From NCBI GenBank assembly GCA_012840385.1, contig DULK01000013.1:1-49305 (forward strand): DNA of 49,305 nucleotides, written 5' to 3'. Shown here one piece after another: positions 1-29,382 of the stretch. The DNA comes from Syntrophomonadaceae bacterium. Its GTDB lineage: Bacteria > Bacillota > DSM-12270 > Thermacetogeniales > Thermacetogeniaceae. Below the pieces are notes generated by a model. That model made no database searches. It was not told where the DNA came from and saw only the letters and a program-made list of their open reading frames with translations. Numbering within the stretch: the first letter of the stretch is position 1; each line of letters opens with the position of its first letter. The translations under genes were made by a program, and so were the position numbers.

Positions 1-552
1 AAACTTGACTGGCGGGAGTACATCCATAGTGATAATCCGGTAGCAGCGGCGCTGTTAAGCAAAATGGGCTTCAGGCCGGAAGAAAGGGTCCGTGTAAAGC
101 TGGAATTCCTGCGCATGCTGGCCCGGAGGAAAGTGGACCCGGCGCGGATGGAGCTGCTGGCCGCTTTTTTCGAGGCCTACCTGAAGCTGAACCGCGAGGA
201 AGAAGAACGACTTTACCGGAAATTGGGTAAAATGGACAAAAAGGAGGTTGATGCCATTATGCAAATAACCACCAGCTGGCATGAAAAAGGCCGGGCGGAA
301 GGTCGCGCGGAAGGCCTTGCGGAGGGCCGGGCGGAGGGCCGTGCGGAAGGTAAGATTAAGGCCAAGCAGGAGGTCATATGCAGGTACCTGGCTCGCAGGT
401 TTGGAGCGGATTCTGCCGCCATACAGGAAAAGGTGCCGCAGCTGACCGACATGGATGCGCTGGATCGGGTGCTGGACGAACTGTTTGCCGCCGGCTCCCT
501 GGAAGAAGCCCGGAACATCATCTGGGAGGAATTGAGCAGGTTCGTTCAGTAA
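1..552 (+). CDS. Rpn-family / PD-(D/E)XK transposase-like nuclease, C-terminal part (5' end outside window)
   Basis: The reading frame is open from base 1 to the TAA at 550-552 and encodes 183 residues, so the gene starts left of the window; an internal ATG at 64 is not needed as a start. The visible part is the helical C-terminal half of Rpn/YhgA-like recombination-promoting nucleases. It includes an acidic/basic helical segment and a repeated Ala-Glu-Gly-Arg stretch (residues about 97-117) that is typical of the linker in these proteins. The nuclease core would lie upstream and cannot be judged. These proteins are commonly multi-copy and mobile-element associated. Family call is from the characteristic AEGRAEG repeat and following helical tail. 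Confidence 0.72.
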   Translation, partial: KLDWREYIHSDNPVAAALLSKMGFRPEERVRVKLEFLRMLARRKVDPARMELLAAFFEAYLKLNREEEERLYRKLGKMDKKEVDAIMQITTSWHEKGRAEGRAEGLAEGRAEGRAEGKIKAKQEVICRYLARRFGADSAAIQEKVPQLTDMDALDRVLDELFAAGSLEEARNIIWEELSRFVQ

Positions 553-553
553 A

Positions 554-585
554 AGGCAAACAAAGGGACGGTTCTCATGTTTGGG
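554..585. repeat. REP-like repeat copy after rpn stop
   Basis: Contains the core GGGACGGTTCTC seen in the REP-like family of this window, starting two bases after the stop codon of the preceding gene. The flanking arms are degenerate (caaa/tttg instead of gacaag/cttgtc). The rest of the gap up to the vapB promoter at 877 shows no gene I can support. Confidence 0.55.
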
Positions 586-876
586 CCTCAGGCAAGTGCA
601 AGCGGCGAAACACGAAGTCGAAAAATCAAGCGGCAGACCTGTTGGTGTCCTGCATCGGATGGAAAAACCGGAGCGGAACAAAATCCTGCCATGAGGGTTC
701 CATAATCGGTTTTTTTCAAACCCAGAACCGTCTCCCTGATTGCTCCCGGGAGCGAAGCGGAGGAGCTTGAAGTGGAAGGTTGAAGAAGGCAGCCGGGGAG
801 GGCATGAAAAATGGCGGGCCTCCCCACCTGGTTGTTTTTGACGGACTGTCTGTTAGACTCTTTTTTTCGGTAGCCA

Positions 877-905
877 TTGCCATAACCACTTACTGGGTTT
901 ATAAT
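877..905 (+). promoter_or_regulatory. Sigma-A type promoter of vapBC module 1
   Basis: TTGCCA (877-882), 17-base spacer, TATAAT (900-905), followed by GGAGG at 928-932 and ATG at 939. Spacing is ideal for a housekeeping promoter. Confidence 0.7.
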
Positions 906-938
906 AGCTTGAAGATAGAACTACTTGGAGGGTATGAA

Positions 939-1196
939 ATGGAACAGGTTATAGTGAGAGTTTCCAGTAAGCGGCAAATAACCTTGCCTGCCGCAATTTA
1001 TAAAAAGCTCGGCATCCAGCCGGGACAAAAACTGTTATTAGAAGTTCAAGGGGACAAAATTATTCTTTCGCCGAAAACTACAAGTTATACGGAACTGCTG
1101 GCCGGTTCATTGAAGAACATCTACGGCCGAACTCCAGAAGAGGTCAATGCTTATATCAGGAAGGAACGCGAAACATGGGACAGGACGCTTTCTTAA
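939..1196 (+). CDS. vapB: AbrB/MazE-type antitoxin (VapB), module 1
   Basis: 85-residue protein with a SpoVT/AbrB swapped-hairpin DNA-binding fold: residues 5-45 carry VSSKRQITLPAAIYKKLGI followed by PGQKLLLEVQGDKIIL. The C-terminal 35 residues would bind the toxin. Start chosen at ATG 939 because GGAGG lies 6 bases upstream; the frame is open further 5' but lacks a ribosome site. It overlaps the downstream PIN toxin by 22 bases, so the pair is translationally coupled. VapB neutralises VapC and usually represses its own operon. Confidence 0.85.
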   Translation: MEQVIVRVSSKRQITLPAAIYKKLGIQPGQKLLLEVQGDKIILSPKTTSYTELLAGSLKNIYGRTPEEVNAYIRKERETWDRTLS

Positions 1197-1636
1197 ACAA
1201 AATTGCCCATGTCAAACGCTTATTACTCGACACCAATGCAATAATCTATTTTTTGCAAGGTATTAGCCCTTACGACACCATTTTAAATCCTTTATTCCGT
1301 CTTTTTGAAGAAGGAAGGCTGCAAGCCGTCATTTCTGTGATTACTGAAGCCGAACTCCTGGTTGGGCCACTTAAAAAGAATAACAAAGAAGCCTTAGCAA
1401 GGGTAAGGCTTCTGCTCAATGAGTTTCCGGGCCTGGAAGTAATCCCCGTTTCGCGTCAGATTGGCCAGATGGCCGCTTCTATCAGAGTTGAAACTAATTT
1501 GCCTCTGCCCGATGCGCTCATCATTGCTACGGCTAAGTCAGTTGGCTGCGATGCAATTGTTGGAAACGATCAATCCTGGTCTAGAATTGATATGCCGGAG
1601 GTACTCCTTCTCGATGATTATGTTAATGTGCTGTAG
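1175..1636 (+). CDS. vapC: PIN-domain ribonuclease toxin (VapC), module 1
   Basis: 153 residues with the PIN signature: first acidic residue in LLLDTNAIIYF (about residue 18), a mid-domain Glu in TEAELLVGP, and the C-terminal acidic pair in LPDALIIATA and VGNDQSW. PIN toxins are Mg-dependent RNases that cleave tRNA or rRNA when freed from VapB. Start overlaps the antitoxin gene. All expected acidic residues are present, so it looks functional. Confidence 0.85.
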   Translation: MGQDAFLNKIAHVKRLLLDTNAIIYFLQGISPYDTILNPLFRLFEEGRLQAVISVITEAELLVGPLKKNNKEALARVRLLLNEFPGLEVIPVSRQIGQMAASIRVETNLPLPDALIIATAKSVGCDAIVGNDQSWSRIDMPEVLLLDDYVNVL

Positions 1637-2002
1637 GGGAGAAGTTTTTAAGCCATAGGACTTCAGGTATAGGACTCGGGTTGCTATAAAAAATTTTCGG
1701 GAAAAGGGCGGGTAGGAGATCCACCAGAGGGGCGCCCACCCGTCATTCATTTGCTTGTGGAGAGGGCCTGTTCTGAGGCAGGCCTTGGTGCCGAATAATC
1801 TGCCTAAGGATTTACCTGATGAAGTGGCTAGCCAGGAGCCTCGTTAATGCTGTCCTTCTTCGGCTGGCAGTATTATAGCTGAGACCTGTCAGGTATGTAT
1901 GGTCACGATGTTTACTGGTCAAACTTTAGGATTAAAGCCAAAGATAATTCAGGAAGCTAAAACGATGGCCTCTACCTGGACTGACATCCATGGGCTGTAA
2001 CG
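1637..2002. other. Intergenic, no supported gene
   Basis: No coding region stands out. Bases 1966-1993 (acctggactgacatcc core) recur at 22112-22136, next to fragments of old genes, which suggests this stretch is rearranged debris. Confidence 0.4.
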
Positions 2003-2250
2003 TTTCATGGTTAAAAGAGGAATATATTATTGAAGGCCATAAAGCTGTGCCGGGAGATGGCGAAAGCGGCTATTGCACTTCGCCAGCGCAAGAACTATGG
2101 CTATGCTGCGGGGCTGCTGTGCCGTGTCAGGAACCTTTATGATCGACTGGGTGAACAGGCTGACTGGAAAAACTACATCACCGCCCTGAAGAATAAATAT
2201 GCCCGTTTCTCCGCTCTGCGTGAGGAATTAAAAAGCCGGTATATAGGGGA
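2003..2250 (+). pseudogene. SWIM-protein gene remnant: N-terminus joined to C-terminus
   Basis: Bases 2003-2029 encode SWLKEEYI, matching SWLTEEYI at the start of the SWIM gene at 8104. They run directly into 2030-2232, which matches the last about 200 bases of that same locus (9616-9816), with roughly 85-90% identity by eye. About 1.5 kb of middle is missing, including the zinc finger. What remains is a fragment with no expected function. The same ends-only architecture is seen for the epimerase remnant at 13021. Confidence 0.8.
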
Positions 2251-2252
2251 TT

Positions 2253-2831
2253 TTATTTTATCCTCGCCAGTGCCCGGTTGACCTCGTTGATGTAAAAATA
2301 CTCCGGGTCAAACTTTCTGCCGCCGGTATCCTTTTCTGCCCAGAGCAGATAATTGTTGTATTCCGGGTGTTTGGGGTTTCGTATAACGCCCAGGAACTCC
2401 TGGTACCCACCAACGCCGCCGACATCCTCCGGCGGCCTGTGGCGGGCACCGGCAATACACAGGGGATAGTGCCGTCCTTCTTTGGCCTCTAGTGTTTTTT
2501 CCAGAACGACCTCGTGCTGCCACTTGTCTCCGAAATCATAGGTATAAGTGCATCTTTTACGCTCTACGAGCAACTCGTCGATTTTTGTTCTTTTGGCGTT
2601 AAGCTCTTTTTTGCCGCCGTATAATTCTCCCGGGGCATAATCAGGGTCGGGGATATGAACAACCACATCACCCAGGTCAAAATTAAAAAGGTGATAATCC
2701 TGCCAGCCGAAAGAGGCCTGAATGATTTTGTGCAGTTTATAGAAGGTGATGTTTTGCGGCACCAAAATCCGCCTCCAGATGGGCGGTTCGATTTCCAGTA
2801 AAGTTATTTTTAGCTGATACACATTACTCAC
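2253..2831 (-). CDS. Plasmid pRiA4b ORF-3 family protein
   Basis: About 192 residues. It matches the pRiA4b_ORF3 domain: an N-terminal LKITLLEIEPPIWRRILVP block, then a conserved LHKIIQASFGWQDYHLF segment, YTYDFGDKWQHEVVLE in the middle, and the CIAGARHRPPEDVGG plus GYQEFL motif near residue 140. The biochemical role of this family is not established. Start placed at GTG 2831 (TTG 2834 is an alternative), because GGAGGT ends 4-7 bases upstream; the longest frame starts inside that ribosome site. It stands alone among gene remnants. Confidence 0.85.
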   Translation of the reverse strand: MSNVYQLKITLLEIEPPIWRRILVPQNITFYKLHKIIQASFGWQDYHLFNFDLGDVVVHIPDPDYAPGELYGGKKELNAKRTKIDELLVERKRCTYTYDFGDKWQHEVVLEKTLEAKEGRHYPLCIAGARHRPPEDVGGVGGYQEFLGVIRNPKHPEYNNYLLWAEKDTGGRKFDPEYFYINEVNRALARIK

Positions 2832-2904
2832 CAAGTCAACCTCCAATCTGTCTGCTTATTCCGGCAGCGCTTTAGTTATCATGCCGGCTTAACACACAGA
2901 GCGC

Positions 2905-2985
2905 ATCCGCCGGTTTCATTTTCCTCACCTCCCGTGGGCTAGTTAAGCACAGAGTAAAGGAAAAAAGTTCCCGTCTGTATGGGGG
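2905..2985 (-). pseudogene. Remnant of the 5' end and leader of a DIP1984-type gene
   Basis: The segment with cattttcctcacctcccgt and the following gaaaaaagttcccgt matches 23950-24022, the start and upstream region of the intact DIP1984 gene. No open coding sequence continues from it, so only the start region survives here. The stretch 2986-3186 shows nothing else I can support, apart from a 20-base match to 10565-10584. Confidence 0.55.
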
Positions 2986-3186
2986 CTTTCCGGCCATAAC
3001 ACGTTAGAGCAGTTTTATTTTGTTGCGATTTCCACCGCCGGTGCAGCTCTGGGATTTCCTGCCTGAATTGTACCATTTCCTCAAACAGACGGCAAGATAC
3101 GCCCTCAAAGGCTGTCACCTCCGGGGGCCAAGCCGCTGTTGGCAGGTAGCCGGGGCTATGTGCTGCTATGCAAACACCGGCTCCAA

Positions 3187-3217
3187 AGCCGGCAAAAATT
3201 ATCTTCGCCACGATCCC
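3187..3217 (+). repeat. Direct repeat, left copy flanking the RecQ/DprA module
   Basis: AGCCGGCAAA-A/G-ATTATCTTC... matches 6780-6810 at about 27 of 31 positions in the same orientation. The two copies bracket the RecQ-PRTase/DprA pair. Confidence 0.5.
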
Positions 3218-3414
3218 AACTTGCCGGAGCTGATTAATTGGGGGAATTTCCTTTGCGCCGGCGAGATGGACGGCGATTAAGTAAAAAAATTTTCCTGATC
3301 CCGGCAGGAAACGAACGTTTATTCGGGGAATTAATATATGTTTTATAAAATTTAAGGAGCAGTAAGAATAAAAATGGGGTAGATAAACAACAGGCTAAAC
3401 AATTATTAAAGAAA

Positions 3415-5454
3415 ATGCTTGGGCCGGAAGCTGATTTTCGAGATGGCCAATGGGAAGCAATTGAGACCATTGTTTGCAAGAAAAAGAAAACGCTGGTTGT
3501 TCAGCGCACAGGTTGGGGGAAAAGTATCGTTTACTTCCTCGCCACCAAAATGCTCAGAGATCAAGGAGCAGGCCCCACTGTCCTGATCAGTCCTTTATTG
3601 TCGCTTATGCGCAATCAGATTGAGATGGCTGCTAAAATTGGCATTCGGGCTGAATCGATCAATAGCACAAATGAAGAAGAATGGACGGATGTCGAGGAGA
3701 AACTCAAAAAGGGTGCCTGTGACGTACTCCTTGTTTCGCCGGAGCGACTGGCCAATCCCCGCTTTTTATCCGATACATTGCCCTCGATAAAGGGCGGCAT
3801 CGGGTTGTTTGTGGTTGACGAAGCGCATTGTATTTCCGATTGGGGCCACGATTTCCGTCCTGATTACCGGCGGATTGTCCGGATTGTTAAAAACCTGCCG
3901 CCAAATGTCCCGGTTCTCGCCACAACGGCAACGGCAAACGAACGCGTTGTAAAGGATATCCGGGATCAGCTTGGCCCGGATCTCACGATCTTGAGGGGTC
4001 CCCTGGCACGGGCTTCTTTACGGCTGCAAAATATTCAGTTAAACGACCAGGCGGAAAGATTGGCCTGGCTTGTGGAAAATCTTCCGAAGTTACCCGGTTC
4101 CGGGATTATATATTGCCTGACAATAGCCGATTGCAAAAGAGTGGCCGAATGGTTGCGCACGCAAGAAATAGAGGCGTGGGAATATCATAGTAAACTTACC
4201 AGTGAAGAGAGGGAGGCGCGGGAACAAAAGCTTTTACAGAATCAAATCAAGGCGCTGGTCGCAACTGTGGCCCTTGGGATGGGTTTCGACAAGCCGGATC
4301 TGGGTTTCGTTATCCATTATCAGCGGCCGGGGTCGTTGGTTTCTTATTATCAACAGGTAGGCCGGGCGGGGCGCGCTATGGACAACGCTTTCGCCGTTCT
4401 CTTAAACGGGCGGGAGGACGATGAAATCCAGGATTACTTTATTAGAACAGCTTTTCCTGGTCCGGAGGAAATGTTTAGGGTGCTGGAGGTTATCGAACAA
4501 TCAGACCAGGGGTTGACAATACCGACTATGTTATCTCATTTAAATATTTCTAAGGGGAGAATTGAAAAGTGTTTGAAGTTGCTGGAGGTGGAAGGAGCGG
4601 TTGCCCGGAATGGCGGCATTTATTTCCGGACCGCAAACCCCTGGGTTCTGGATACAAAAAGAGCAGAAAAGGTTACTGGGCTTCGTTATCAGGAGCTAAA
4701 GACAATAAAAGAATTTGTGGTTACAAAAGAATGTTTGATGGAGTTTATTGCTCGTGAATTAGACGATCCGTATGCTGGCCCTTGCGGCAAATGCGCAAAT
4801 TGCCAATCCCCGTTCTTTACGACTAGCTTAAATCAAGAACTGGTATCAAAGGCAGTTGAATTTCTACGCCGTGATTACCAGATAATTGAACCAAGGAAAC
4901 AATGGCCGCCTGGCGGTATTGGAAGATGGCGAGGGCGTATTCCGGATAATCTACGAAATGAGGAGGGCCGGTGTTTGTGCATTTATGGTGATGCCGGCTG
5001 GGGTCGGCAGGTTGGGGTTGATAAATACCAGAATAACCGGTTTGGCGACGAACTTGTGTCTGCGGCTGTAGATTTGATCAAAAACCGGTGGCAGCCGCAG
5101 CCGCCTCCAGCCTGGGTTACCGCTGTCCCTTCTCTGCGGCGGCCGGAGCTGGTCCGAGATTTTGCCCGAAGGTTGGCCGAAGGGCTCGGTCTCCCGTTTT
5201 ATCCGGTCCTGGTTAAGGTTAAGGATACGCCTGAACAAAAGAACATGCAGAACAGCACTCAACAAGCCCGCAATGTGGCGGACGCTTTTCAAGTAAAAGG
5301 TTCCTGTCTGGGTGGAGCCGTTTTGCTGGTAGACGATCTGGTGGATTCCCGCTGGACCCTGACGGTCTGCGGGGCTCTTCTCCGGGAAGCGGGCAGCGGC
5401 CCCGTTCATCCGTTTGTGCTGGCGACTGCAGCTGGAGGAGGTGACCTCGAATGA
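3415..5454 (+). CDS. RecQ-type helicase fused to a phosphoribosyltransferase domain (PsyrT/RqlH-like)
   Basis: 679 residues. Residues 8-340 form a superfamily 2 RecQ core: FRDGQWEAI (motif 0), RTGWGKS Walker A at 31-37, DEAH at 135-138, TATA near 170 and QVGRAGR at 314-320. A RecQ zinc site follows (C440, C457, C460, C463). Residues about 545-670 are a ComF-like phosphoribosyltransferase fold with VLLVDDLVDSRWT (636-648) as the PRPP loop, replacing the HRDC domain of housekeeping RecQ. This fusion paired with a DprA-like gene matches PsyrTA/RqlHI, known as a toxin-antitoxin or anti-phage type module. Stop overlaps the next start (ATGA). ATG 3415 is the only start in frame, but AAGGAG at 3354-3359 and ATG 3374 suggest the original start was lost by a one-base shift, costing about 15 residues. 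Confidence 0.85.
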   Translation: MLGPEADFRDGQWEAIETIVCKKKKTLVVQRTGWGKSIVYFLATKMLRDQGAGPTVLISPLLSLMRNQIEMAAKIGIRAESINSTNEEEWTDVEEKLKKGACDVLLVSPERLANPRFLSDTLPSIKGGIGLFVVDEAHCISDWGHDFRPDYRRIVRIVKNLPPNVPVLATTATANERVVKDIRDQLGPDLTILRGPLARASLRLQNIQLNDQAERLAWLVENLPKLPGSGIIYCLTIADCKRVAEWLRTQEIEAWEYHSKLTSEEREAREQKLLQNQIKALVATVALGMGFDKPDLGFVIHYQRPGSLVSYYQQVGRAGRAMDNAFAVLLNGREDDEIQDYFIRTAFPGPEEMFRVLEVIEQSDQGLTIPTMLSHLNISKGRIEKCLKLLEVEGAVARNGGIYFRTANPWVLDTKRAEKVTGLRYQELKTIKEFVVTKECLMEFIARELDDPYAGPCGKCANCQSPFFTTSLNQELVSKAVEFLRRDYQIIEPRKQWPPGGIGRWRGRIPDNLRNEEGRCLCIYGDAGWGRQVGVDKYQNNRFGDELVSAAVDLIKNRWQPQPPPAWVTAVPSLRRPELVRDFARRLAEGLGLPFYPVLVKVKDTPEQKNMQNSTQQARNVADAFQVKGSCLGGAVLLVDDLVDSRWTLTVCGALLREAGSGPVHPFVLATAAGGGDLE

Positions 5455-6755
5455 ATATTTCCCCTGACAGCCAGGCGATAATCTTGTTGTGTTCCAGTTT
5501 GGCCGTTTCAAGGAAGGGTGAGAAAGACGAAGATGAAAAGACTCCTTTTACATTACCGGAATGGAATGTAATTGCCAGGAAATTATCCAGTTCGGTACTG
5601 AAGTCTCCGGGAGCGTTTTTCCAGGCAGATCCTGAACAATGGCAGAAATACTTGGGTCTTTCGAAAAAAGAAGTCAATCGCATCGCAAAACTTTTATCGC
5701 GGACCGGCCAACTGGCTATAGAGTTGGAAAGACTGGAGAGTCTGGGAATCTGGGTGGTAACCAGGGCAGATCCTTTTTATCCTTCCCGTTTAAAAACTCT
5801 GCTAAAACAGCGCGCCCCGCTGGTCCTTTTCGGGGCGGGGGAGCCGGGCCTTTTAGAGCTTGAGGGAGTGGCCGTTGTCGGCGCGCGCGATGTTGATGCG
5901 GAGGGAGCCGACTTCACGAATCGCCTGGCGCAAAGATGCGCAGAGGAAGGACTCATCGTTGTTTCCGGCGGGGCGCGCGGAGTGGATCAGATCGGCCAGG
6001 ATTCGGCTCTTGCTGCCGGAGGTAAGGCGGTAACCGTTCTGGCGGACAGCCTGGAAGCGCGGCTTCGCCAGAGGAAAGTGAGGGAAGCCGTCTTATCCGG
6101 GTGTCTTGTATTATTATCCCCATATCATCCCGGCGCTCGTTTTACTGTTGGTTCCGCTATGTGCCGGAACAAGTACATTTACGCCTTATCAAGATATGCC
6201 GTAGTTGTTTCTGCTTCCTTCAACAAAGGCGGTACCTGGGCAGGGGCGGTAGAAAATCTCAGGCATAAATGGGTACCTCTTTTCGTACGGGACGGTGAAA
6301 ACACGCCCGAAGGCAACCAGCGTTTAATTGAGAAAGGCGGAATTCCTCTGAAGCCCCAGATGCTGGACGATAAAGGCGGGCTGCGCGCCACGCTGGAATT
6401 TTACAGCGCAAAAGCCTTTGGATACACCCGGCCGGATGCAGGTGAGGCCGTGGTAGGCGAATCTTTAGAGAAAAAAGATCCGGTTGCCAGAAGAAAGGAT
6501 CCGGGTCTCCAGCCGGCTAATGAGCACGATTTGTTCGCTATTGTCTGGCCATACATAGAGAAAGAATTGGATACACCTAAGACTGAGCAGGAACTGGCGG
6601 ATAAGCTGAAAGTTCGCCGTAGGCAAATGCAGGACTGGCTCAAGAAGGCGCAGGAACTGGGTAAAGTGCACAAAATGACCAGGCCGGTAAGGTACGCCCG
6701 CTCTTTGCACTTAAAGAAAATTAGCCAGCCCTCGCTGTTTGAGGACATTAAATGA
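5451..6755 (+). CDS. DprA-like Rossmann nucleotide-binding protein (PsyrA/RqlI-like partner)
   Basis: 434 residues. The middle third (about 125-330) is a DprA/Smf Rossmann-like domain: LFGAGEPGLL, VAVVGARDVDAEG, then IVVSGGARGVDQIGQDSAL and a SASFNKGGTWAGAVENL block near the ligand pocket. A C-terminal winged helix (about 375-420, TEQELADKLKVRRRQMQDWL) is present. The N-terminal 120 residues resemble the DprA helical region. In PsyrTA/RqlHI-type pairs the DprA-like protein is the antitoxin or partner of the RecQ-PRTase. ATGA overlap with the upstream gene supports co-translation. It could also be a lone competence DprA, but its length and the partner argue against that. Confidence 0.82.
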   Translation: MNISPDSQAIILLCSSLAVSRKGEKDEDEKTPFTLPEWNVIARKLSSSVLKSPGAFFQADPEQWQKYLGLSKKEVNRIAKLLSRTGQLAIELERLESLGIWVVTRADPFYPSRLKTLLKQRAPLVLFGAGEPGLLELEGVAVVGARDVDAEGADFTNRLAQRCAEEGLIVVSGGARGVDQIGQDSALAAGGKAVTVLADSLEARLRQRKVREAVLSGCLVLLSPYHPGARFTVGSAMCRNKYIYALSRYAVVVSASFNKGGTWAGAVENLRHKWVPLFVRDGENTPEGNQRLIEKGGIPLKPQMLDDKGGLRATLEFYSAKAFGYTRPDAGEAVVGESLEKKDPVARRKDPGLQPANEHDLFAIVWPYIEKELDTPKTEQELADKLKVRRRQMQDWLKKAQELGKVHKMTRPVRYARSLHLKKISQPSLFEDIK

Positions 6756-6779
6756 TTGGCCGAGGGTTTTCCTCCGGCA

Positions 6780-6810
6780 AGCCGGCAAAGATTATCTTCA
6801 TCACGAACCC
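6780..6810 (+). repeat. Direct repeat, right copy flanking the RecQ/DprA module
   Basis: Second copy of the 31-base repeat at 3187-3217, starting 24 bases after the dprA-like stop codon. Confidence 0.5.
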
Positions 6811-6845
6811 CATTCGGAAGGAAAGCAATTTATGTTTTCCCTGTG

Positions 6846-6974
6846 GTTACAGCGAAAGAAGTAATCGGGTTGCGGAACGCATAGGGTTTGTTTTTGACCG
6901 GCAAAAGGGGAGCCATGCGGTCTACTACCGACCGCCGCGTTACTCTGTTTGTTTTCCCGGACAGCATAATTTAG
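6846..6974 (+). pseudogene. hicA: HicA-type toxin remnant, frameshifted
   Basis: Three successive frames give VTAKEVIGL, then ERIGFVFDRQKGSHAVYYRPP, then RVTLFVFPDSII and a stop. Joined, this is a YcfA/HicA mRNA-interferase with its catalytic GSH kept. Two frame changes, no start with a ribosome site and no hicB nearby mark it as dead. Confidence 0.65.
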
Positions 6975-7002
6975 TTTTTATCACCATCTCGGAGAAAAAT
7001 TG

Positions 7003-7033
7003 TTGTCGTTGACGACGTAAATGACATTATAAT
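7003..7033 (+). promoter_or_regulatory. Candidate promoter/operator of TA module 2
   Basis: TATAAT at 7028-7033. The best -35 is TTGTCG (7003-7008, 19-base spacer); TTGACG at 7009 is too close. The imperfect spacing overlaps the inverted repeat GTCGT-TG-ACGAC (7005-7016), which could be an autoregulatory site. Confidence 0.4.
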
Positions 7034-7066
7034 ACAATAGCAACAAAGCTCAGGATGGTGGTGAGT

Positions 7067-7381
7067 ATGGAAAAGAAATGGATGACGGTTCAAGAAGCAG
7101 CAGACCACCTGGGGGTGGCGCGGGCCACCGTCTATAAGTGGGCAAAACAGGGCCGTTTCCCCATTTACAAATTGGGAGAAAGAGCAGCCCGGATCCGCAT
7201 TGAAGACCTGAAAAAGTTCTTGATGCAGGCCAGGCCGCTTTACGAGAACAGGCCTTCCGACAGAGCCACCAGAGAGAAAATCCTGAAAAAGACGAAGGGA
7301 GCCTGGGCGGATAACCCTGTAATTGACCAGGCACTGGCCGAGATAAACCGGGGTTGGAATGAATGGGTAGAGAGATCATAA
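7067..7381 (+). CDS. Excisionase/MerR-type HTH antitoxin of TA module 2
   Basis: 104 residues. N-terminal helix-turn-helix of the excisionase (DNA-binding domain, excisionase family) type at residues 4-50: MTVQEAADHLGVARATVYKWAKQ then GRFPIYKLGERAARIRIEDL. The C-terminal half is helical and charged and probably wraps the PIN toxin encoded next. Start at ATG 7067 is preferred over ATG 7055 because GGTGGTGAG precedes it. Overlap of 19 bases with the toxin gene. Likely represses its own promoter. Confidence 0.82.
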   Translation: MEKKWMTVQEAADHLGVARATVYKWAKQGRFPIYKLGERAARIRIEDLKKFLMQARPLYENRPSDRATREKILKKTKGAWADNPVIDQALAEINRGWNEWVERS

Positions 7382-7755
7382 TTGACACCTCGACTATCAT
7401 TGCTCATTTCCGGGCGAAGGGTAAAAAGAAGACCGCCTTCGAGCAGGCTGTTGAGGATTATGAAAAGGTCTACATCTCGGCAATCACAGCGTGGGAAATC
7501 GAATACGGCGCTCTCCGGGCCGGACGCTCCTCGGACCTGGCGGATATCCTGACGATTGTAGAAGTATTGCCGTTTGGCCTCGGAGAAGCACAGGCCGCAG
7601 CAAAAATATACAAGGAACTAAAAGACCGCAACCAGGAAATAGGGATCCGGGATACCTTCATCGCGGGAACCTGCATACAGAACAACCTTCCTCTGCTAAC
7701 AACAAACCTGGAACATTTCAGGCGCATCGACGGGTTAAAAGTTCTGGGGGCCTAG
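7363..7755 (+). CDS. vapC: PIN-domain toxin (VapC), module 2
   Basis: 130 residues with PIN residues in IIIDTSTIIAHF (D near residue 8), AITAWEIEYGALRAG (E), GIRDTFIAGTCI (D) and LLTTNLEHFRRI (terminal acidic site modified to TTNLEHF, as is common in this branch). It overlaps its HTH antitoxin, consistent with coupled expression. Predicted Mg-dependent RNase that slows translation when released. Confidence 0.86.
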   Translation: MGREIIIDTSTIIAHFRAKGKKKTAFEQAVEDYEKVYISAITAWEIEYGALRAGRSSDLADILTIVEVLPFGLGEAQAAAKIYKELKDRNQEIGIRDTFIAGTCIQNNLPLLTTNLEHFRRIDGLKVLGA

Positions 7756-7764
7756 CACAAACAC

Positions 7765-7870
7765 AAACAGGGGGACGGTTCAACTGTTTGCCTCCCTCAG
7801 GCGGCCTGCAGGGCCGAGTCGAGGCTTCCAAAAAATTGGGACGGTTCAACTGTTTGCCCCCCTCAGGCCT
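7765..7870. repeat. Variant REP-like repeats in tandem
   Basis: Two copies of GGGACGGTTCAACTGTTTGCC (7776 and 7841) each followed by a cccctcaggc stretch, starting about 10 bases after the vapC stop. The core GGGACGGTTC is shared with the main REP family, but the arms differ (caaac/gtttg). From 7871 to 8103 I see no gene; 8020-8085 shares pieces with 10349-10385 and 12910-12955. Confidence 0.6.
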
Positions 7871-8103
7871 TGTTCGGTCTATGCCCTCCAAAATGAAGCC
7901 ATAATTGTTAGTGCAGATGTAGGGTGGACCGGTAATTGTAGAGAAAATGGAGAAGATAAAGAGGCAGATCATGAAAACCCCTTCGGCGAACTGCTGAGAA
8001 CTGCTGGGGAGTTTGGCTTTCTCGCCGGCTTTGACGGGAATAAAGAGCAAGGTATGCTTGACGTTGTTTGAGGATAAAACGGGGGCAGGAGAAAGGCGGG
8101 TTT

Positions 8104-9624
8104 ATGGACGGCAGCAATCTCTCATGGTTAACGGAGGAATATATTCGTCAAATGGCGGACGGGCAAAGTTTTGAGCGCGGGATGAATTACTACGCCGGCG
8201 GAAACATTCGCCATCCCATCCGGCAGGGGATGGAACTGAGCGGTGAGTGTTATGGGTCACAGCCGAAGCCGTACAGGGTCAGGGTTGTTTTGAATAATAA
8301 CGGCATCCGGGAGGCATCCTGTACCTGTCCCCGGGGAGGGTTTTGCAAACATATCGTCGCCCTCTTGCTGACCTATGTTCATGAACCGGATTCTTTTAAG
8401 GTTTTAGCGTCACTGGACGCCATGCTTGCCCGGCTCAGCAGGGAAGAACTCATTTCGCTGATCGGCGATATGCTTCAGCGGGAGCCGTCTTTGTCGGCTG
8501 TAGTCGATTTGGCTGTGGCTACGGCCGGTGGGCAGTCTCCGGATATGGCGGCATTGAACCGAGAAGTGAAGAGGGCGTTGAGCCTGGATGACCCCTTTGA
8601 AATAGAGATGGCCCTGCGGAACATCTTGCGAACGGCTGAGCGCCTGGCCCGGAAAGAAGACTGGCCGGGGGCAGGTGCGGCCTACCAAACGGTGCTTGAC
8701 GCTCTGACAGAGATTTATGGCAATGAGTTGTTGAGCATGGACGATGATGGAGCCATCGCCGCCATTGCCGGCGAATGTGTGGAGGGATTGAGCGAGTGCC
8801 TTAATCGAGGTGATTGCGACCGCAACACGCGGCAGGCCTGGTTGATGTCACTGATGGAGGCCGAACTGGCTGATATAGAAATGGGTGGTATCGATTTTGC
8901 CGGTGATGCCCTGGATACCATATTTGAGCATGCCGGCGAGCAGGATTGGGAGCTGCTTCGGGAATGCGTATGTGAACATATCCCGAAAAGCGGCGAATGG
9001 GGGCGGGAGAGGCTGGTAGGAATACTGGTAGCCTGGGAGGAAAAGAACGGCCGCTATGAGCAGGCCAGGCGGTTAATTCAGGAAATGGGAACCGTGGAAC
9101 AGCGAGCTTTTCTTATGGTCAGAGATGGCGAACCTGGAAGAGCGGTAGCCCTGGCGAAGCAGCACATGAGGGATAAACCGGGGATTGTCATGCGTCTGGC
9201 CGGTGCGCTGGCAGACGCCGGAGCCGGGGAACACGCCGTGGCACTGTTAACCGAACTGGCGGGTTCGCAGGATTCCCATCCCGGTTACCTGGAATGGCTG
9301 GCGAACTACCACAGCAGGAATGGAGAATTGGATGAGGCATTAAAATGGCAGCGCCGGCTTTTTGAGCAGTACCCTACGCTTGCGTCATTTAGGAAATTAC
9401 GCCAGGTTTGCGAAAAGCTTGGAATTTGGCCGCAGGTGCGCAACGAGATATTGAAAGTGCTGGAGCGCAAAAAGCAGGCAGGCATTCTGATTGAGATAGC
9501 CCTGGACGAGGGGGATGTGGCGCGGGCGCTGGAACTGTTGCCCGGGATTCCTCCGGGGGGCTGGCACGACTATCGAGGTAAAGTAGCCAGGGCCGCCAAA
9601 AAAAGCATCCCCGGGAGGCCATAA
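8104..9624 (+). CDS. SWIM zinc-finger protein, main frame (frameshifted near the C-terminus)
   Basis: 506 residues in this frame. An N-terminal SWIM zinc finger is visible at about residues 65-80 (CTCPRGGFCKH, the CxCxnCxH pattern), a fold that binds DNA or protein partners. The rest is helical and TPR-like, with repeated aromatic/Ala patterns (AYQTVLDAL, GEHAVALLTELA, DEALKWQRRLFEQYP). Start at ATG 8104 follows GGAGAAAGG. The frame ends in IPGRP-stop just after a run of seven A (9598-9604); one base back, the protein continues to 9830. Bacterial SWIM proteins of this build have no settled role. An ends-only copy lies at 2003. Confidence 0.78.
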   Translation: MDGSNLSWLTEEYIRQMADGQSFERGMNYYAGGNIRHPIRQGMELSGECYGSQPKPYRVRVVLNNNGIREASCTCPRGGFCKHIVALLLTYVHEPDSFKVLASLDAMLARLSREELISLIGDMLQREPSLSAVVDLAVATAGGQSPDMAALNREVKRALSLDDPFEIEMALRNILRTAERLARKEDWPGAGAAYQTVLDALTEIYGNELLSMDDDGAIAAIAGECVEGLSECLNRGDCDRNTRQAWLMSLMEAELADIEMGGIDFAGDALDTIFEHAGEQDWELLRECVCEHIPKSGEWGRERLVGILVAWEEKNGRYEQARRLIQEMGTVEQRAFLMVRDGEPGRAVALAKQHMRDKPGIVMRLAGALADAGAGEHAVALLTELAGSQDSHPGYLEWLANYHSRNGELDEALKWQRRLFEQYPTLASFRKLRQVCEKLGIWPQVRNEILKVLERKKQAGILIEIALDEGDVARALELLPGIPPGGWHDYRGKVARAAKKSIPGRP

Positions 9625-9980: not shown

Positions 9981-10009
9981 AACTGCAGCCTGCTGTTTTT
10001 ACCGGGCAT
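9917..10009 (-). pseudogene. Truncated VapC toxin fragment
   Basis: ATG at 10009 overlaps the antitoxin stop by 11 bases, as in normal vapBC pairs. The first codons read MPGKNSRLQFVDTN, the PIN start with its first catalytic Asp, then the frame enters the dispersed repeat and stops after 30 residues. Nearly all of the toxin is missing. Confidence 0.72.
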
Positions 10010-10247
10010 GGAGTTCCTCCCTGCCCCCGGTTATGCATCCCCTTGTGGCCATGTTAAACCCCTCCAGCATGGCGAGATGGCGCTCCCGAGCCCGACGGTA
10101 CTCATCTTCTTTGGCTGTAAGATCCGTGAGCAACTGGGTTAGCAGGCCGGAAAGAGAGGTTCCCCGCTCGATGGCGAGGTGCTTTGCACGGCGCAGCACC
10201 TCCTTGGGAATAGAAAGAGTGACGTTTTGGTAATCGATCCGCCTCAC
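9999..10247 (-). CDS. Orphan ribbon-helix-helix antitoxin (VapB-like)
   Basis: About 83 residues. The N-terminus YQNVTLSIPKEVLRRAKHLA with IERGTSLSGLLTQLL is a ribbon-helix-helix, and the C-terminus ends GGREELHAR as in VapB proteins that precede PIN toxins. The start is uncertain: GGAGGTGAGG lies exactly where a ribosome site should be, but the codon after it is ATC; GTG 10247 overlaps that site. The start codon may have been lost. The toxin downstream is truncated, so this is either dead or a free antitoxin. Confidence 0.6.
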   Translation of the reverse strand: MRRIDYQNVTLSIPKEVLRRAKHLAIERGTSLSGLLTQLLTDLTAKEDEYRRARERHLAMLEGFNMATRGCITGGREELHAR

Positions 10248-10592
10248 CTCCACATAAAAAAGTGTATCACTTAAATACGTGAATATTAAGCCGGTTTCCT
10301 TGCCGGTTTCTTTTTCCCCTGGTAGAATGATACCAGGCAGAGGTGCCGGTTCTCGCCGGCTTTGACGGGGGGAAAGCAAGGTACTGCTTCACCAGGTGCT
10401 TGAAGATAGAACGACTAGGTCGCTGGCCGTTGACATGGATGGCGTTCATACCCTTGAGCAATTTGTTCTTGGGAACCTTCATTTCTTGTCAAAAACAGAA
10501 TCGATTAACTGTCGGGGGAAAAGCGCAGGAAAGTCGGTTCTTTAATTGTCTTGTTCTATTCTGTTGCGATTTCCACCGCCGGTAAGCCGCTG
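10248..10592. other. Intergenic with repeat fragments
   Basis: Holds a segment (10349-10385, ctcgccggctttgacggg) shared with 8022-8040, a short gcttgaagatagaac match to 907-921, and 10565-10584 shared with 3020-3040. A 71-codon minus-strand frame starting at 10482 looks partly coding but I do not recognise it. Confidence 0.4.
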
Positions 10593-10620
10593 TTGACAGT
10601 TCGCCAGGGCATGTTATAAT
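10593..10620 (+). promoter_or_regulatory. Sigma-A promoter of vapBC module 3
   Basis: TTGACA (10593-10598), 16-base spacer, TATAAT (10615-10620). A near-consensus promoter directly in front of the operator and the antitoxin gene. Confidence 0.82.
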
Positions 10621-10624
10621 TCAG

Positions 10625-10640
10625 GTAAGATATGTCTTAC
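10625..10640. promoter_or_regulatory. Inverted-repeat operator of vapBC module 3
   Basis: GTAAGA-TATG-TCTTAC, perfect 6-base arms, five bases downstream of the -10 box and so over the transcription start. A nearly identical site sits in the same place at 22836-22850. Fits autorepression by VapB. Confidence 0.72.
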
Positions 10641-10657
10641 TATAGGGGTGAAACCGG

Positions 10658-10921
10658 ATGGTGACGACCGTAACTGTATCCAGCAAGGGGCAGATAGTTT
10701 TGCCTGCATTTATCAGGGAAAAGGTGCCTGTTAAACAGGGGGATGTGCTGCTGGTAAACCTGGTGGGGGATAAGATCGTCATCGAGCCTTTAATCAAGCC
10801 TGAGCGGAAAGACTGGGAAAGAATCCTCAAGGAAACAGCAGGTACATGGAAGGATATTTCTCCGGATTATGTGGATGAACTGAGGGCGATGTCTGCAACC
10901 AGATTGGATGAGAATCAATGA
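10658..10921 (+). CDS. vapB: AbrB/MazE-type antitoxin (VapB), module 3
   Basis: 87 residues. AbrB fold at 4-47: VTVSSKGQIVLPAFIREKV, then KQGDVLLVNLVGDKIVIEPL. The C-terminal tail (DWERILKETAGTWKDI...YVDELRA) is the likely VapC-binding arm. Its stop overlaps the toxin start by four bases (ATGA). The strong promoter and palindromic operator in front make autoregulation likely. Confidence 0.88.
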   Translation: MVTTVTVSSKGQIVLPAFIREKVPVKQGDVLLVNLVGDKIVIEPLIKPERKDWERILKETAGTWKDISPDYVDELRAMSATRLDENQ

Positions 10922-11307
10922 AGACCTTGATTGATACAAATATCTGTATCGATCATTTGCGGGGCTACCGGCCGGCTACTGAATACTTATTGAAATTACA
11001 AAATATGGAGAGATGGATCAGTGCCATAACGGTTATGGAGCTTTATGCCGCTCCCCGTATCAGTGCTGAACAGGAGGAGCGGATGGCAGGCTTTATCGCC
11101 GCTTTCAACGGTATTATCGATATTGACCAAAACATAGCCAGAACTGCGGGAGAACTCATTGCTAAATACAGGAAGGATTATGGCCTGAATCCTGTTGATG
11201 CTCTCATTGCCGCAACGGCTCTTTTTTTGGATGCCGTCCTCATCACACGCAACAAAAAACATTTTGATTTCATCCGGGGCATAATCGTTCAGTGCCCCTA
11301 TCAGTGA
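10918..11307 (+). CDS. vapC: PIN-domain toxin (VapC), module 3
   Basis: 129 residues; PIN motif residues in TLIDTNICIDHLRG (D near residue 5), ITVMELYAAPR (E), NPVDALIAATAL (D) and LITRNKKHFDFI at the end. Ends with IIVQCPYQ; a stray copy of that last stretch lies at 13345-13371. Co-transcribed with its antitoxin. All catalytic positions appear intact. Confidence 0.88.
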   Translation: MKTLIDTNICIDHLRGYRPATEYLLKLQNMERWISAITVMELYAAPRISAEQEERMAGFIAAFNGIIDIDQNIARTAGELIAKYRKDYGLNPVDALIAATALFLDAVLITRNKKHFDFIRGIIVQCPYQ

Positions 11308-11529
11308 GAGCCTGCACCTGGCCTTGTAAAGAAGGGCTGGAAAAGCGAATTGCTTGGTTGGACACAGAAAAAGGAAAAACCTGCCAGTTCCCACGTCCCG
11401 AGCAGGACCTTACGGAGGAAGCTGTCAAGGACCAGAGACATGATCCTCCTGAAGCCGTTTTTCTTGCCGGGTTACTTTCAGGCTGGTAGAATGGCCGGAA
11501 AACATTCAAATTTGAATTGAGGTGCAAGC

Positions 11530-12888
11530 ATGAAAATCTTTGAAGTAGAGAGGAACGACTTTTGCCCCTGCGGCAGCGGGCGCAAGTTTAAAAAATGCTG
11601 CCAGGAGAGGGTGGAGGATGCTGTTCGCCGCATCGGCCGGGTGATCGGCCTGGGAGACTGCACGGCCGAGGGGCGGGAGATTGTTGAAACCCTCGGATTT
11701 ATGTACGGGATGCGGGTTGAGGAAGAGGGCCGCATGCCCGACCCGGAGTTCCTTGGAAGGCTGTTGCAGGACGCCTGGGATGAGGAAGAGCGGCTGCGCG
11801 ACCGCGGGGATGAGGTCGGTATAAAAGGCCTTTTGAAACGGTTTCAGGAGCTTCTGGGCGAGAAGCCGTATTTGAGGCATCTCAGGGTTCCGGTCTGGCA
11901 GTTCGATTTTGATGAGGACTTTGACATTATGGAATACCTCAACAGAACGTTGGGATATCGGCTTGCCAGAAGGTCGGTGGAGTTGATCCGCCTGTCGCTT
12001 CTTTACGATGACTGCAGCGAAGACGAGCTCAAACTGTTGCTCACGGGGCTGAGCTGGCTGGTGACGGACGAGCAGCGAGAACTGTTCTGGTGGTCTGTTC
12101 TTTCCAGGACGCGGGATGATCTGATGGCGGCGGCCGGGGAGATGAGTGAAATCTCTGGAAAGTACCGGGACAAGGATCAGGCCGGCTTTTACGCCGGGGT
12201 AGCAGCCCTTTTTGATAAATATCCGGTATACAAGAAAATGCTGTCGGAAAGCCTGACGGAAGAGATTGAGCCTGCAGTAACCGCCGTTATGCAGGGAAAA
12301 ATAAAGCTGGATGTTCCCCTCTACTCCGTACTGGGTGGGATTTACGCAACAATCTCCGGCCTTGTAGAAAGTTTAGAAGATCTGCTTTCACGCCGCAGGG
12401 TACCCCCTGTGCTGCTGCCGCTTCTCGAGGAGGCGCTCCTGGACGCCGGTGGGTACGAATTTTTCCTTCCGGAGGTCGTCAATTCTCTCAGTGAGAGGAT
12501 GGACGAGGTCCAGGACGGCGACTTGAAAGAATCTCTTGGCAAACTGATGCTTTACCTTTCTTTTATGTATGACGACAACAGGTATGCGCTGCTCGAATAC
12601 CTTTATCTGAGGCATGCCTGCATATTCCTGGTCGGGCTGCCTCTGGTTCTGCAGGAGGCAGGGGTGGAGTTTAAAGACGTCAAAGATCTGTGCGACGAGA
12701 ACCTGGTTGAAAAGTACGCCGCTTACCTGGAGTCCCGGAATCTGGTGGAAGAAGCCGGATATGTGCGGGATGTCTACCGGTCCTTTGGTGCACAGGCGAG
12801 GGAAAAGGCGGCAGACGGTCAGAAAGATCTGGTTAGCATCGCCCGGTCGCTAGTGGAAGAAGAGACACGGACAAGTCACAGTATATAA
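11530..12888 (+). CDS. SEC-C zinc-motif protein of unknown role
   Basis: 452 residues. Only the N-terminus is recognisable: FCPCGSGRKFKKCCQ (residues 11-26), the SecA-C-terminal-like zinc motif CxCx8CC found in SecA and many hypothetical proteins. The remaining 420 residues are acidic, helical and without a domain I know. No signal peptide, no membrane segments. GAGGTG precedes ATG 11530. It is monocistronic: 220 bases separate it from vapC upstream and the next sequence is an epimerase remnant. Confidence 0.7.
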   Translation: MKIFEVERNDFCPCGSGRKFKKCCQERVEDAVRRIGRVIGLGDCTAEGREIVETLGFMYGMRVEEEGRMPDPEFLGRLLQDAWDEEERLRDRGDEVGIKGLLKRFQELLGEKPYLRHLRVPVWQFDFDEDFDIMEYLNRTLGYRLARRSVELIRLSLLYDDCSEDELKLLLTGLSWLVTDEQRELFWWSVLSRTRDDLMAAAGEMSEISGKYRDKDQAGFYAGVAALFDKYPVYKKMLSESLTEEIEPAVTAVMQGKIKLDVPLYSVLGGIYATISGLVESLEDLLSRRRVPPVLLPLLEEALLDAGGYEFFLPEVVNSLSERMDEVQDGDLKESLGKLMLYLSFMYDDNRYALLEYLYLRHACIFLVGLPLVLQEAGVEFKDVKDLCDENLVEKYAAYLESRNLVEEAGYVRDVYRSFGAQAREKAADGQKDLVSIARSLVEEETRTSHSI

Positions 12889-12909
12889 AGCAACTTTCCC
12901 GTTGAAGAA

Positions 12910-12955
12910 AAGCAAGATATTGCTTAACGTTGTTTGAGGATAAAACGGAGGCGGC
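12910..12955 (+). repeat. Leader fragment shared with the SWIM gene
   Basis: AACGTTGTTTGAGGATAAAACGG and neighbours match 8047-8082, just upstream of the SWIM gene. No SWIM coding sequence follows here. Confidence 0.5.
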
Positions 12956-13020
12956 CCACGGGAGAGCATCGTCGGCGTTGCTGGCGAAAGGCGAATTCTG
13001 GAAGGAAGGAGACAGTTCCA

Positions 13021-13334
13021 GTGAAGATACTTAGATACTTTTAACAGGGGGAGCCGGGTTTATCAGCTCCAATATTGTTGACGCCCTTGTTGACGAGGGG
13101 CACCACGTTGTGGTGGTGGACAACCTGAGCAGCGGGAAAAGGGAGAACCTGAACCCGGCTGCCAGGTTTTACGAGCTTGATATCTGCGATCCCATGCTGG
13201 AGGAGGTTTTCCGGCAGGAGAAGATCTACCTTGAAGCCGATAAAGCCGCACGGGAGCTGAACTGGGACTCGCAGGTGGATCTCCGGGAAGGCCTGCGCCG
13301 CACTGTGGAATACCTGGCCAATGATAAGAGATGA
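13021..13334 (+). pseudogene. Epimerase (galE-like) remnant with internal deletion
   Basis: Matches the ends of the intact epimerase at 20726-21691. Bases 13021-13212 correspond to codons 1-65, and 13213-13334 to the last 40 codons; about 650 bases between are gone. The first codons carry an extra stretch that brings a stop (GTG AAG ATA CTT AGA TAC TTT TAA), so the Rossmann GGxGFIG start is out of frame. The catalytic YxxxK region is within the deleted part. Clearly non-functional. Confidence 0.85.
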
Positions 13335-13344
13335 AGAGTTAGGT

Positions 13345-13371
13345 ATGATCGTTCAGTGCCCGTACCAGTGA
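13345..13371 (+). pseudogene. 3' tip of a vapC gene
   Basis: Encodes MIVQCPYQ-stop, matching the last codons of vapC module 3 (11284-11307) with a few changes. Only this tail is left, directly after the epimerase remnant. Confidence 0.6.
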
Positions 13372-13434
13372 GTCAGGTGAGTCGTGCCGGTTTAAGATCA
13401 TACCGCTGTTGCCCGGAGAGTAGCCGGGCAACGT

Positions 13435-15867: not shown

Positions 15868-16080
15868 TTGCCGTAACTCCTTCCTCCTGCCGGCGTATTC
15901 GCCCCGGGATTTATTATCTACCATTTCGCCGCATTATATGAAGCAAAAAGGGGCCGCCATCCCCCTACGTCCTGGCGCTATCCACCGTCCACTATGAAGT
16001 AAAAGGGGTGGCGCCGCACCGGATGCGGCAGCAACCCCGCTTGAAGCTGTAAAAATCACTTCTCGGCCTTCCATAGCTTG

Positions 16081-16176
16081 CCCGGCACTCACTCCGCCTT
16101 CGTAAGTCGAAGAAGAACAATAACGGAATTATTGGATAAGGACCGGTTATGCAACAGGGTTTCGGTGAGTGCCGGG
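16081..16176. repeat. Perfect 12-base inverted repeat enclosing 72 bases
   Basis: CCCGGCACTCAC at 16081-16092 and GTGAGTGCCGGG at 16165-16176. No frame inside. Could be a miniature element's ends or a long hairpin. The surrounding gap 15868-16217 has no gene I can support. Confidence 0.6.
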
Positions 16177-16217
16177 TCGCGGCGCCGGCAAGGAAAAACG
16201 CTCTTTTCGATTCTTAT

Positions 16218-16280
16218 AGACAAGAGAACCGTCCCCTTGTCTGGAGAACCGTCCCCTTGTCTTTCTTGTCTTGCTTGTCT
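16218..16280. repeat. REP-like repeats directly after iorB
   Basis: AGACAAG-AGAACCGTCCC-CTTGTCT forms a 7-base stem; a second partial unit follows. The block touches the iorB stop codon on the minus strand. Confidence 0.8.
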
Positions 16281-16868
16281 TTACAGCAGGCGCATCCCGG
16301 CCTCCAGGGCGATCAGGTTCACCTCCCGGTACTGCGGCCGCACCGCCCCAGCCACAACCTCCTTCCAGTCGACGAGGCCGTCGAGCCCGGCCAGCCGCAG
16401 CATGGCACCAAGCAGCACCACGTTCATCACCCGGGGATTCCCAAGCCTTTCCGCCTCCCGGTCGGCATCGATTAAATAGAGGGAGACGGGGAAAGAGGCC
16501 AGCCGCTCCTCGATGTCCCGGGGGTAGGGAACCGCCCCGGTGAGGACGGGGAGTGAGGGGATCTCCCTCATGTTTGCCAGGAGGGTGCCGCTCCTCTTCA
16601 GGAAGTGCACGTAGCGCAGGGCTTCCAGCTTCTCCAGGGTCACCAGGATGTCGATCGCCCCCGGGCCCGCCAGCGGGGAGTAAACCCGTTCCCCGAAGCA
16701 GACCTGGGTGACCACGCTTCCACCGCGCTGGGCCATCCCGTGCACCTCCGTGCTCTTGACATCCAGCCCCGCCCGGAGCAGGCCTTCCGCCAGCACCCGG
16801 GAGGCGAGGAGGATCCCCTGGCCGCCGACCCCGGCGAACATCACCCGTTTCGTCCCTTCTGCCATCAT
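16281..16868 (-). CDS. iorB: Indolepyruvate:ferredoxin oxidoreductase, beta subunit
   Basis: 195 residues of the pyruvate-ferredoxin-oxidoreductase gamma type: VMFAGVGGQGILLASRVLAEGLL at the start, VHGMAQRGGSVVTQVCFGERVYSP near 45-65, and the C-terminal NVVLLGAMLRLAGL. With IorA it oxidatively decarboxylates aryl-pyruvates (indolepyruvate, phenylpyruvate, 4-hydroxyphenylpyruvate) to aryl-acetyl-CoA, reducing ferredoxin. Start overlaps the iorA stop by four bases, the usual arrangement. Confidence 0.92.
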   Translation of the reverse strand: MMAEGTKRVMFAGVGGQGILLASRVLAEGLLRAGLDVKSTEVHGMAQRGGSVVTQVCFGERVYSPLAGPGAIDILVTLEKLEALRYVHFLKRSGTLLANMREIPSLPVLTGAVPYPRDIEERLASFPVSLYLIDADREAERLGNPRVMNVVLLGAMLRLAGLDGLVDWKEVVAGAVRPQYREVNLIALEAGMRLL

Positions 16869-29375: not shown

Positions 29376-29382
29376 ACAAGCT

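What the first reader, a model, noticed from the sequence alone, without database searches (positions are those of the whole stretch)
3415..6755. RecQ-phosphoribosyltransferase plus DprA pair resembling PsyrTA/RqlHI in a Firmicute
Seen: a RecQ helicase core with zinc site but no HRDC, a PRPP-loop domain (VLLVDDLVD) at the C-terminus, and an ATGA-coupled DprA-like gene with a winged helix. Known: PsyrTA/RqlHI-type modules pair a RecQ-PRTase with a DprA-like partner and act as toxin-antitoxin or phage-defence units. Inference: this is such a module in an accessory stretch full of VapBC pairs, and not DNA-repair housekeeping. The PRTase substrate is unknown.
Basis: partly seen in the sequence, partly recalled or inferred. 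Interest (0 to 1): 0.7.

Follow-up and report, generated by a model that had tools for sequence, protein, structure and literature searches.

The report
PsyrTA (RqlHI) toxin-antitoxin defence module
This is a recognisable, ordinary member of a known bacterial gene pair (PsyrTA, also called RqlHI), a DNA helicase fused to a nucleotide-type enzyme plus a DprA-like partner that restrains it, probably a self-poisoning defence device; the only odd detail is that its toxin gene seems to have lost the frame of its normal start codon.

Summary
P0001 (3415-5454 +) matches the PADLOC PsyrT model over its full length (975.8 bits) and P0002 (5451-6755 +) the PsyrA model over its full length (408 bits); both fall below the cut-offs for housekeeping RecQ and DprA. 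The genome's ordinary DprA and ComFC lie on other contigs. A genome-collection scan gave 80 homologues, 49-62% identical over nearly the whole query, and 72 have psyrA directly downstream. The helicase and PRPP-loop residues whose mutation was studied in E. coli RqlH are present. The block 605-6999 is absent from a same-genus genome, replaced by about 85 bp, so it is accessory. One correction: the conserved N-terminal helix lies upstream of ATG 3415, and the expected start, ATG 3374, is one base out of frame. The toxin gene is therefore either lesioned or mis-assembled. Toxicity and phage defence are inferred from relatives, and one native-host test of an E. coli PsyrTA found no protection. 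This is a new member of a known kind.

The parts
3415..5454 (+). psyrT (rqlH): RecQ-like helicase fused to a phosphoribosyltransferase domain, 679 aa as annotated from ATG 3415
   Evidence: PADLOC PsyrT 975.8 bits, residues 2-673 vs 16-685/689; 80 full-length homologues
3379..3414 (+). in-frame stretch encoding the conserved N-terminal helix (VDKQQAKQLLKK), upstream of the annotated start and without an in-frame start codon
   Evidence: aligned with the N-terminus of homologues, L at -2 kept in at least 93%; family HMM match begins at 3385; 74 of 78 homologues start 18-40 residues before F8, the window does not
3374..3376 (+). ATG at the expected start position but one base out of frame with psyrT (ATG GGG TAG); AAGGAG at 3354-3359 upstream
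   Evidence: sequence, frame check; inference that this was the start
3442..3957 (+). helicase domain 1 (DEAD), Walker A GKS with K36 and DEAH with D135
   Evidence: Pfam PF00270; K36 and D135 align with E. coli K49 and D148
4084..4377 (+). helicase domain 2 (Helicase_C)
   Evidence: Pfam PF00271
4732..4803 (+). four-cysteine zinc site C440, C457, C460, C463
   Evidence: kept in 60-65 of 80 rows; RecQ_Zn_bind matched by 24 of 48 members
4963..5430 (+). phosphoribosyltransferase domain (about residues 517-672)
   Evidence: PF00156 weak at 583-670, 24 of 48 members match; AlphaFold pLDDT 90-98 over most of it
5320..5364 (+). PRPP loop (LLVDDLVDSRWTLT region) with D640, D641, D644, S645, W647, T648
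   Evidence: D640 in 80/80, D641 79/80, D644 76/80, S645 79/80; counterpart of the DIVD motif mutated in RqlH (PMC4670107)
5451..5454 (+). ATGA overlap of psyrT stop and psyrA start
   Evidence: sequence; the same ATGA/GTGA overlap in 29 of 72 homologous pairs
5451..6755 (+). psyrA (rqlI): DprA-like antitoxin, 434 aa
   Evidence: PADLOC PsyrA 408 bits, residues 1-416 vs 1-395/398
5733..6338 (+). DprA Rossmann-type domain of PsyrA
   Evidence: Pfam PF02481 126 bits; Foldseek to DprA 3uqz and ShosA 8zva
6531..6701 (+). C-terminal winged helix of PsyrA (residues 361-417)
   Evidence: AlphaFold model, pLDDT 88-98
605..6999 (.). accessory block holding psyrTA, absent from the same-genus genome G001 where about 85 bp stand in its place

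Best explanation
This is a PsyrTA/RqlHI module. PsyrT is a RecQ-like helicase (3'-5' translocase by analogy with characterised RqlH) whose C-terminal PRTase domain is the poison; PsyrA, a DprA-like protein made from the same transcript, binds the PRTase domain and holds it in check. The likely mode of action is this: on phage infection or replication stress, exposed ssDNA or a phage factor engages the helicase and/or draws PsyrA away; the PRTase then consumes PRPP or alters nucleotides, damages DNA metabolism and stops growth, so that the infection aborts. Shown here: family membership, domain make-up, intact catalytic residues, conserved gene pairing, accessory placement. Inferred from relatives: binding, toxicity, trigger, substrate and defence. 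In this genome the toxin may be translated poorly or not at all, because its expected start codon is one base out of frame.
For: Full-length PsyrT and PsyrA model matches. All 48 aligned members also match the PsyrT model. 72 of 80 homologues, from many bacterial phyla, have psyrA directly downstream, 29 of them overlapping by ATGA/GTGA. The residues tested in RqlH are kept: K36, D135 and the DxxD PRPP loop (PMC4670107). In RqlHI the PRTase domain is needed for toxicity, RqlI relieves it, and the interaction needs the PRTase domain. PsyrA folds like DprA and ShosA. The block is missing from G001, psyrA occurs in only 2 of 20 class members searched, and fragments at 93-96% identity persist in another genus. 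The E. coli relative sits inside a type I restriction operon, and neighbours of other relatives match Hma, BREX, restriction, Septu and DRT proteins.
Against: No toxicity or defence was measured. An E. coli PsyrTA gave no detectable protection in its native host, though its expression slowed growth (PMC12409345). The 2015 survey found rqlH without rqlI in nearly all Gram-positives, so PsyrT may have roles apart from the pair. The PRTase match in this protein is below Pfam's cut-off. The toxin's expected start is out of frame. The neighbour scan had no matched control.
Confidence: 0.8

Rival explanations
1. A PsyrTA module that is decaying: the toxin gene has lost its start frame and only psyrA, or nothing, is still working.
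For: No in-frame start at the conserved position, ATG 3374 one base off, only ATG 3415 inside the conserved helix; psyrTA is visibly in ruins in G015; the neighbouring SWIM gene also carries a one-base deletion.
Against: The remaining 679 codons are open and all catalytic residues are conserved, so any lesion is recent; both shifts lie at homopolymer runs, which also suits a sequencing or assembly error.
Confidence: 0.35
2. DNA-repair or competence housekeeping: a RecQ variant and a competence DprA that happen to be neighbours.
For: Homology to RecQ (TIGR01389 307 bits) and DprA; the genome has no other RecQ.
Against: Both fall well under the housekeeping cut-offs. Canonical DprA and ComFC lie elsewhere. 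Same-genus genomes lack both RecQ and PsyrTA, so neither is needed. The pairing is kept across phyla.
Confidence: 0.04
3. A ShosTA system rather than PsyrTA.
For: PsyrA shares the DprA-like fold with ShosA and weakly matches ShosA models.
Against: PsyrA model 408 bits against 93 for ShosA; here the PRTase is fused to a RecQ helicase, whereas the ShosTA-type partner is described as a PRTase.
Confidence: 0.01

Closest known systems
RqlHI of extraintestinal E. coli (PMC4670107)
   Same: RecQ-PRTase followed by a DprA-like gene; same helicase and PRPP-loop residues; close or overlapping genes, rqlH first
   Different: about 50% identical PsyrT/RqlH (E. coli plasmid copy); the E. coli pair examined here sits between hsdS and hsdR, this one among PIN toxin pairs; start frame here disturbed
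PsyrTA of Pseudomonas syringae (validated TA family of Sberro et al. 2013, cited in PMC8790059)
   Same: best full-length model match for both proteins
   Different: host phylum; toxicity of this copy untested
ShosTA / P2-hotspot PRTase-DprA (PMC9122126; mechanism summarised in PMC12593503)
   Same: PRTase toxin with DprA-like antitoxin; PsyrA folds like ShosA 8zva
   Different: the ShosTA-type partner is described as a PRTase, without the RecQ helicase fused here; ShosA model scores far lower than PsyrA
ComFA/ComFC/DprA competence proteins
   Same: helicase, PRTase and DprA themes; own-genome ComFC has a related PRPP loop VLLVDDVYTTGAT and matches the PsyrT model's C-terminus
   Different: separate genes on other contigs; the loop here is VDDLVDSRWT; a RecQ-type helicase
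Orphan RqlH of actinobacteria (Mycobacterium smegmatis type)
   Same: RecQ-PRTase architecture
   Different: no rqlI partner there; L056 and L065 here are like that

Membership tests
PsyrTA / RqlHI | RecQ-like helicase core fused to a C-terminal PRTase domain | tested here: met
PsyrTA / RqlHI | DprA-like partner gene directly downstream | tested here: met
   72 of 80 homologues
PsyrTA / RqlHI | Conserved Walker A Lys, DEAH Asp and PRPP-loop DxxD shown to matter in RqlH | tested here: met

PsyrTA / RqlHI | Activity of this copy (not a family-defining feature): intact toxin frame from the conserved N-terminus | tested here: inconclusive
   no in-frame start at the conserved site; ATG 3374 is one base out of frame; lesion and assembly error cannot be told apart. 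This lowers the claim that this copy makes an active toxin, not the family assignment
PsyrTA / RqlHI | Toxicity of PsyrT relieved by PsyrA; physical binding | not testable with these tools
   known for RqlHI, not for this copy
PsyrTA / RqlHI | Anti-phage activity | not testable with these tools
   listed in PADLOC; one E. coli native-host test saw none
Canonical RecQ | Score over the RecQ equivalog cut-off; HRDC present | tested here: not met
   307.5 vs 640.2 bits; no HRDC match
Canonical DprA (competence) | Score over the DprA equivalog cut-off; housekeeping position | tested here: not met
   98.8 vs 191.15 bits; canonical copy at G000:C18
ShosTA | Best match to ShosA, stand-alone PRTase | tested here: not met
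   93 vs 408 bits; PRTase fused to a helicase
Dpd system (DpdF) | DpdF helicase with the other dpd genes | tested here: not met
   DpdF equivalog 157.9 vs 550 bits; no dpd cluster among the flanking genes scanned

The most novel reading that the evidence does not exclude
The out-of-frame start (ATG GGG then the conserved frame) is real and regulatory: production of full toxin needs slippage on the G run or internal initiation at 3415, giving a translational brake on PsyrT.
Probability: 0.05. Interest if true: 0.4.

Novelty: new member of a known kind. Interest (0 to 1): 0.22.

Why it matters
It places an already listed defence-type toxin-antitoxin pair in a Spo0A-bearing Firmicute lineage, with clear evidence that it is accessory, and adds a broad alignment in which the PRTase loop and the conserved Q608/N613/Q617/N620 motif stand out as targets for working out the unknown substrate. 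It changes no general picture.

Tried and rejected
Housekeeping RecQ plus competence DprA: rejected on scores, synteny and the presence of canonical DprA and ComFC elsewhere. ShosTA and Dpd assignments: rejected on scores. Carriage on phages: no phage record covers 80% of PsyrT; five IMG/VR contigs hold relatives, two near full length; 11 plasmid records cover at least 80%. Foldseek of the whole PsyrT model returned only RecQ-family helicases among the listed hits, so it gave no independent PRTase match. The PDB sequence search with the PRTase part gave only weak PRPP-synthetase hits (E 0.03 and above). Promoter and terminator scan: promoter-like sites no more than in shuffles, terminator-like sites about as in shuffles. 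G009:C379 first looked like the other half of a PsyrT but scores as canonical RecQ.

Full report
Observation. Two overlapping ORFs stand at 3415-5454 (+, 679 aa, P0001) and 5451-6755 (+, 434 aa, P0002), sharing ATGA. P0001 holds DEAD and Helicase_C domains and a weak C-terminal PRTase match; P0002 holds a DprA domain. The host carries Spo0A, as expected of a Firmicute.

Family. PADLOC's PsyrT model matches P0001 at 975.8 bits over residues 2-673, and PsyrA matches P0002 at 408 bits over residues 1-416; ShosA models reach only 93 bits. RecQ and DprA equivalog models fall short of their cut-offs: 307.5 against 640.2 and 98.8 against 191.15. A scan of genome contigs with P0001 kept the best 80 loci, 49-62% identical over nearly the whole query, from many bacterial phyla and one haloarchaeon. 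In 72 of them psyrA follows directly; of the 8 without it several end near the contig edge, and two (L056, L065) are actinobacterial, in line with the 2015 report that Gram-positive rqlH often stands alone (PMC4670107). The pairs in Bacillus (L034), Clostridium (L048) and two further Bacillota MAGs (L049, L075) show that the pairing in Firmicutes is not unique; in the tree the window joins these Bacillota (support 92, not a strongly supported node) within a set rich in Chloroflexota. PsyrTA has also been detected by PADLOC in the Bacillus cereus group (PMC11811056).

Anatomy. K36 and D135 align with E. coli K49 and D148, the helicase residues studied in RqlH; the PRPP loop D640-D641-x-x-D644-S645-x-W647-T648 is nearly invariant, as are Q608, N613, Q617 and N620. 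Four cysteines (440, 457, 460, 463) form the zinc site in most members. No HRDC match is seen in 48 members. AlphaFold models: PsyrT mean pLDDT 91.8 with RecQ-type helicase matches in the PDB; PsyrA mean pLDDT 90.3 with an N-terminal helical region, the DprA fold and a C-terminal winged helix, nearest in the PDB to DprA (3uqz, 3maj) and ShosA (8zva). The genome's own ComFC (loop VLLVDDVYTTGAT) and canonical DprA lie on contigs C104 and C18.

Start codon. In homologues a helix of about 14 residues precedes the point where the window ORF begins. The window encodes that helix in frame (VDKQQAKQLLKK, 3379-3414), and the PsyrT model match starts at 3385. But no in-frame ATG, GTG or TTG exists there. 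Of 78 homologues, 74 have one 18-40 residues before the invariant F8; three of the four exceptions are cut short at the 5' end. The window has only ATG 3415, seven residues before F8. ATG 3374, behind AAGGAG 3354-3359, is at the expected distance but reads ATG GGG TAG, one base off. A second one-base deletion sits beside an A run at about 9598 in the neighbouring SWIM gene, relative to G001 and G006. Assembly error and a real recent lesion are both possible; reads would decide.

Context. PIN-domain toxin genes with antitoxin-like partners lie at 780-1636, 7055-7755 and 10658-11307. In the same-genus genome G001, window 1-604 and 7000-7802 are neighbours on one contig with about 85 bp between them, so 605-6999 is missing there. 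Among 20 members of the class, only this genome and G009, where a divergent PsyrT is cut by the contig edge, hold PsyrA. G015, of another genus, keeps fragments of psyrT and psyrA at 93-96% identity with a large internal deletion, between other small genes that resemble toxin-antitoxin pairs (that resemblance is read by eye, not scanned). The same-genus genomes also lack canonical RecQ, so PsyrT is no stand-in for an essential RecQ. In E. coli strain 2/0 the homologous pair lies between hsdS and hsdR of a type I restriction operon, and 117 neighbours sampled from other relatives include strong matches to Hma, BREX, type I methylase, Septu and DRT models (no matched control was run).

Mechanism. 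For RqlHI it is published that RqlH alone is genotoxic, that this needs the PRTase domain and its PRPP-pocket residues, that RqlI relieves it, and that the interaction needs the PRTase part (PMC4670107). A 2025 review states that ShosT is a phosphoribosyltransferase and pyrophosphatase that disturbs purine metabolism, with ShosA binding DNA and T7 Gp0.7 as trigger (PMC12593503). By analogy, PsyrT's helicase part would sense or load on ssDNA and its PRTase would poison nucleotide or DNA metabolism when PsyrA is drawn away. I found no paper that names the trigger or the substrate for PsyrTA. A native-host study of an E. coli PsyrTA saw no anti-phage effect and a growth defect on expression (PMC12409345), so the defence role is not settled.

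Verdict. Observation confirmed, interpretation supported, novelty low. The family assignment is near certain (about 0.97 in my estimate); toxin-antitoxin action about 0.8 for the family and lower for this copy because of the start-frame problem; phage defence about 0.6.

Noticed in passing
window 8068-9624 (+): SWIM zinc-finger gene has a one-base deletion near 9598 relative to G001 and G006, shortening it to 518 aa against 589 aa in G001.
   Followed up: partly
window 2030-2281 (+): Stray duplicate of the 3' end of the SWIM gene: G001's copy of that gene end also matches window 2034-2249 at 90%.
   Followed up: no
window 557-694 and 737-864: Short sequences that recur many times in genomes of this family (G000:C78, G011:C15, G006:C25), dispersed repeats of unknown kind; no Rfam match there.
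   Followed up: no
window 64-552 (+): DUF4351-like gene (sub-threshold match), present in several copies in this genome and relatives at 87-96% identity.
   Followed up: no
window 10002-10379 (-): DUF6364 protein, possibly a lone antitoxin without an evident partner.
   Followed up: no
L109 (G001:C24) 10173-16593: At the spot matching window 7802-8009, G001 carries instead a 6.4-kb insert with a sortase, a SpaA-like surface protein and a leucine-rich-repeat protein: a cargo hotspot.
   Followed up: partly
window 34445-34561 (-): Molybdenum/tungsten cofactor riboswitch, 82.5 bits.
   Followed up: no
window 26289-29447 (-) and 26313-29375 (+): Two long overlapping open frames on opposite strands; by eye the + frame (1020 aa) looks like an FAD-linked oxidase and the - frame (no Pfam match) looks like a shadow frame.
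   Followed up: partly
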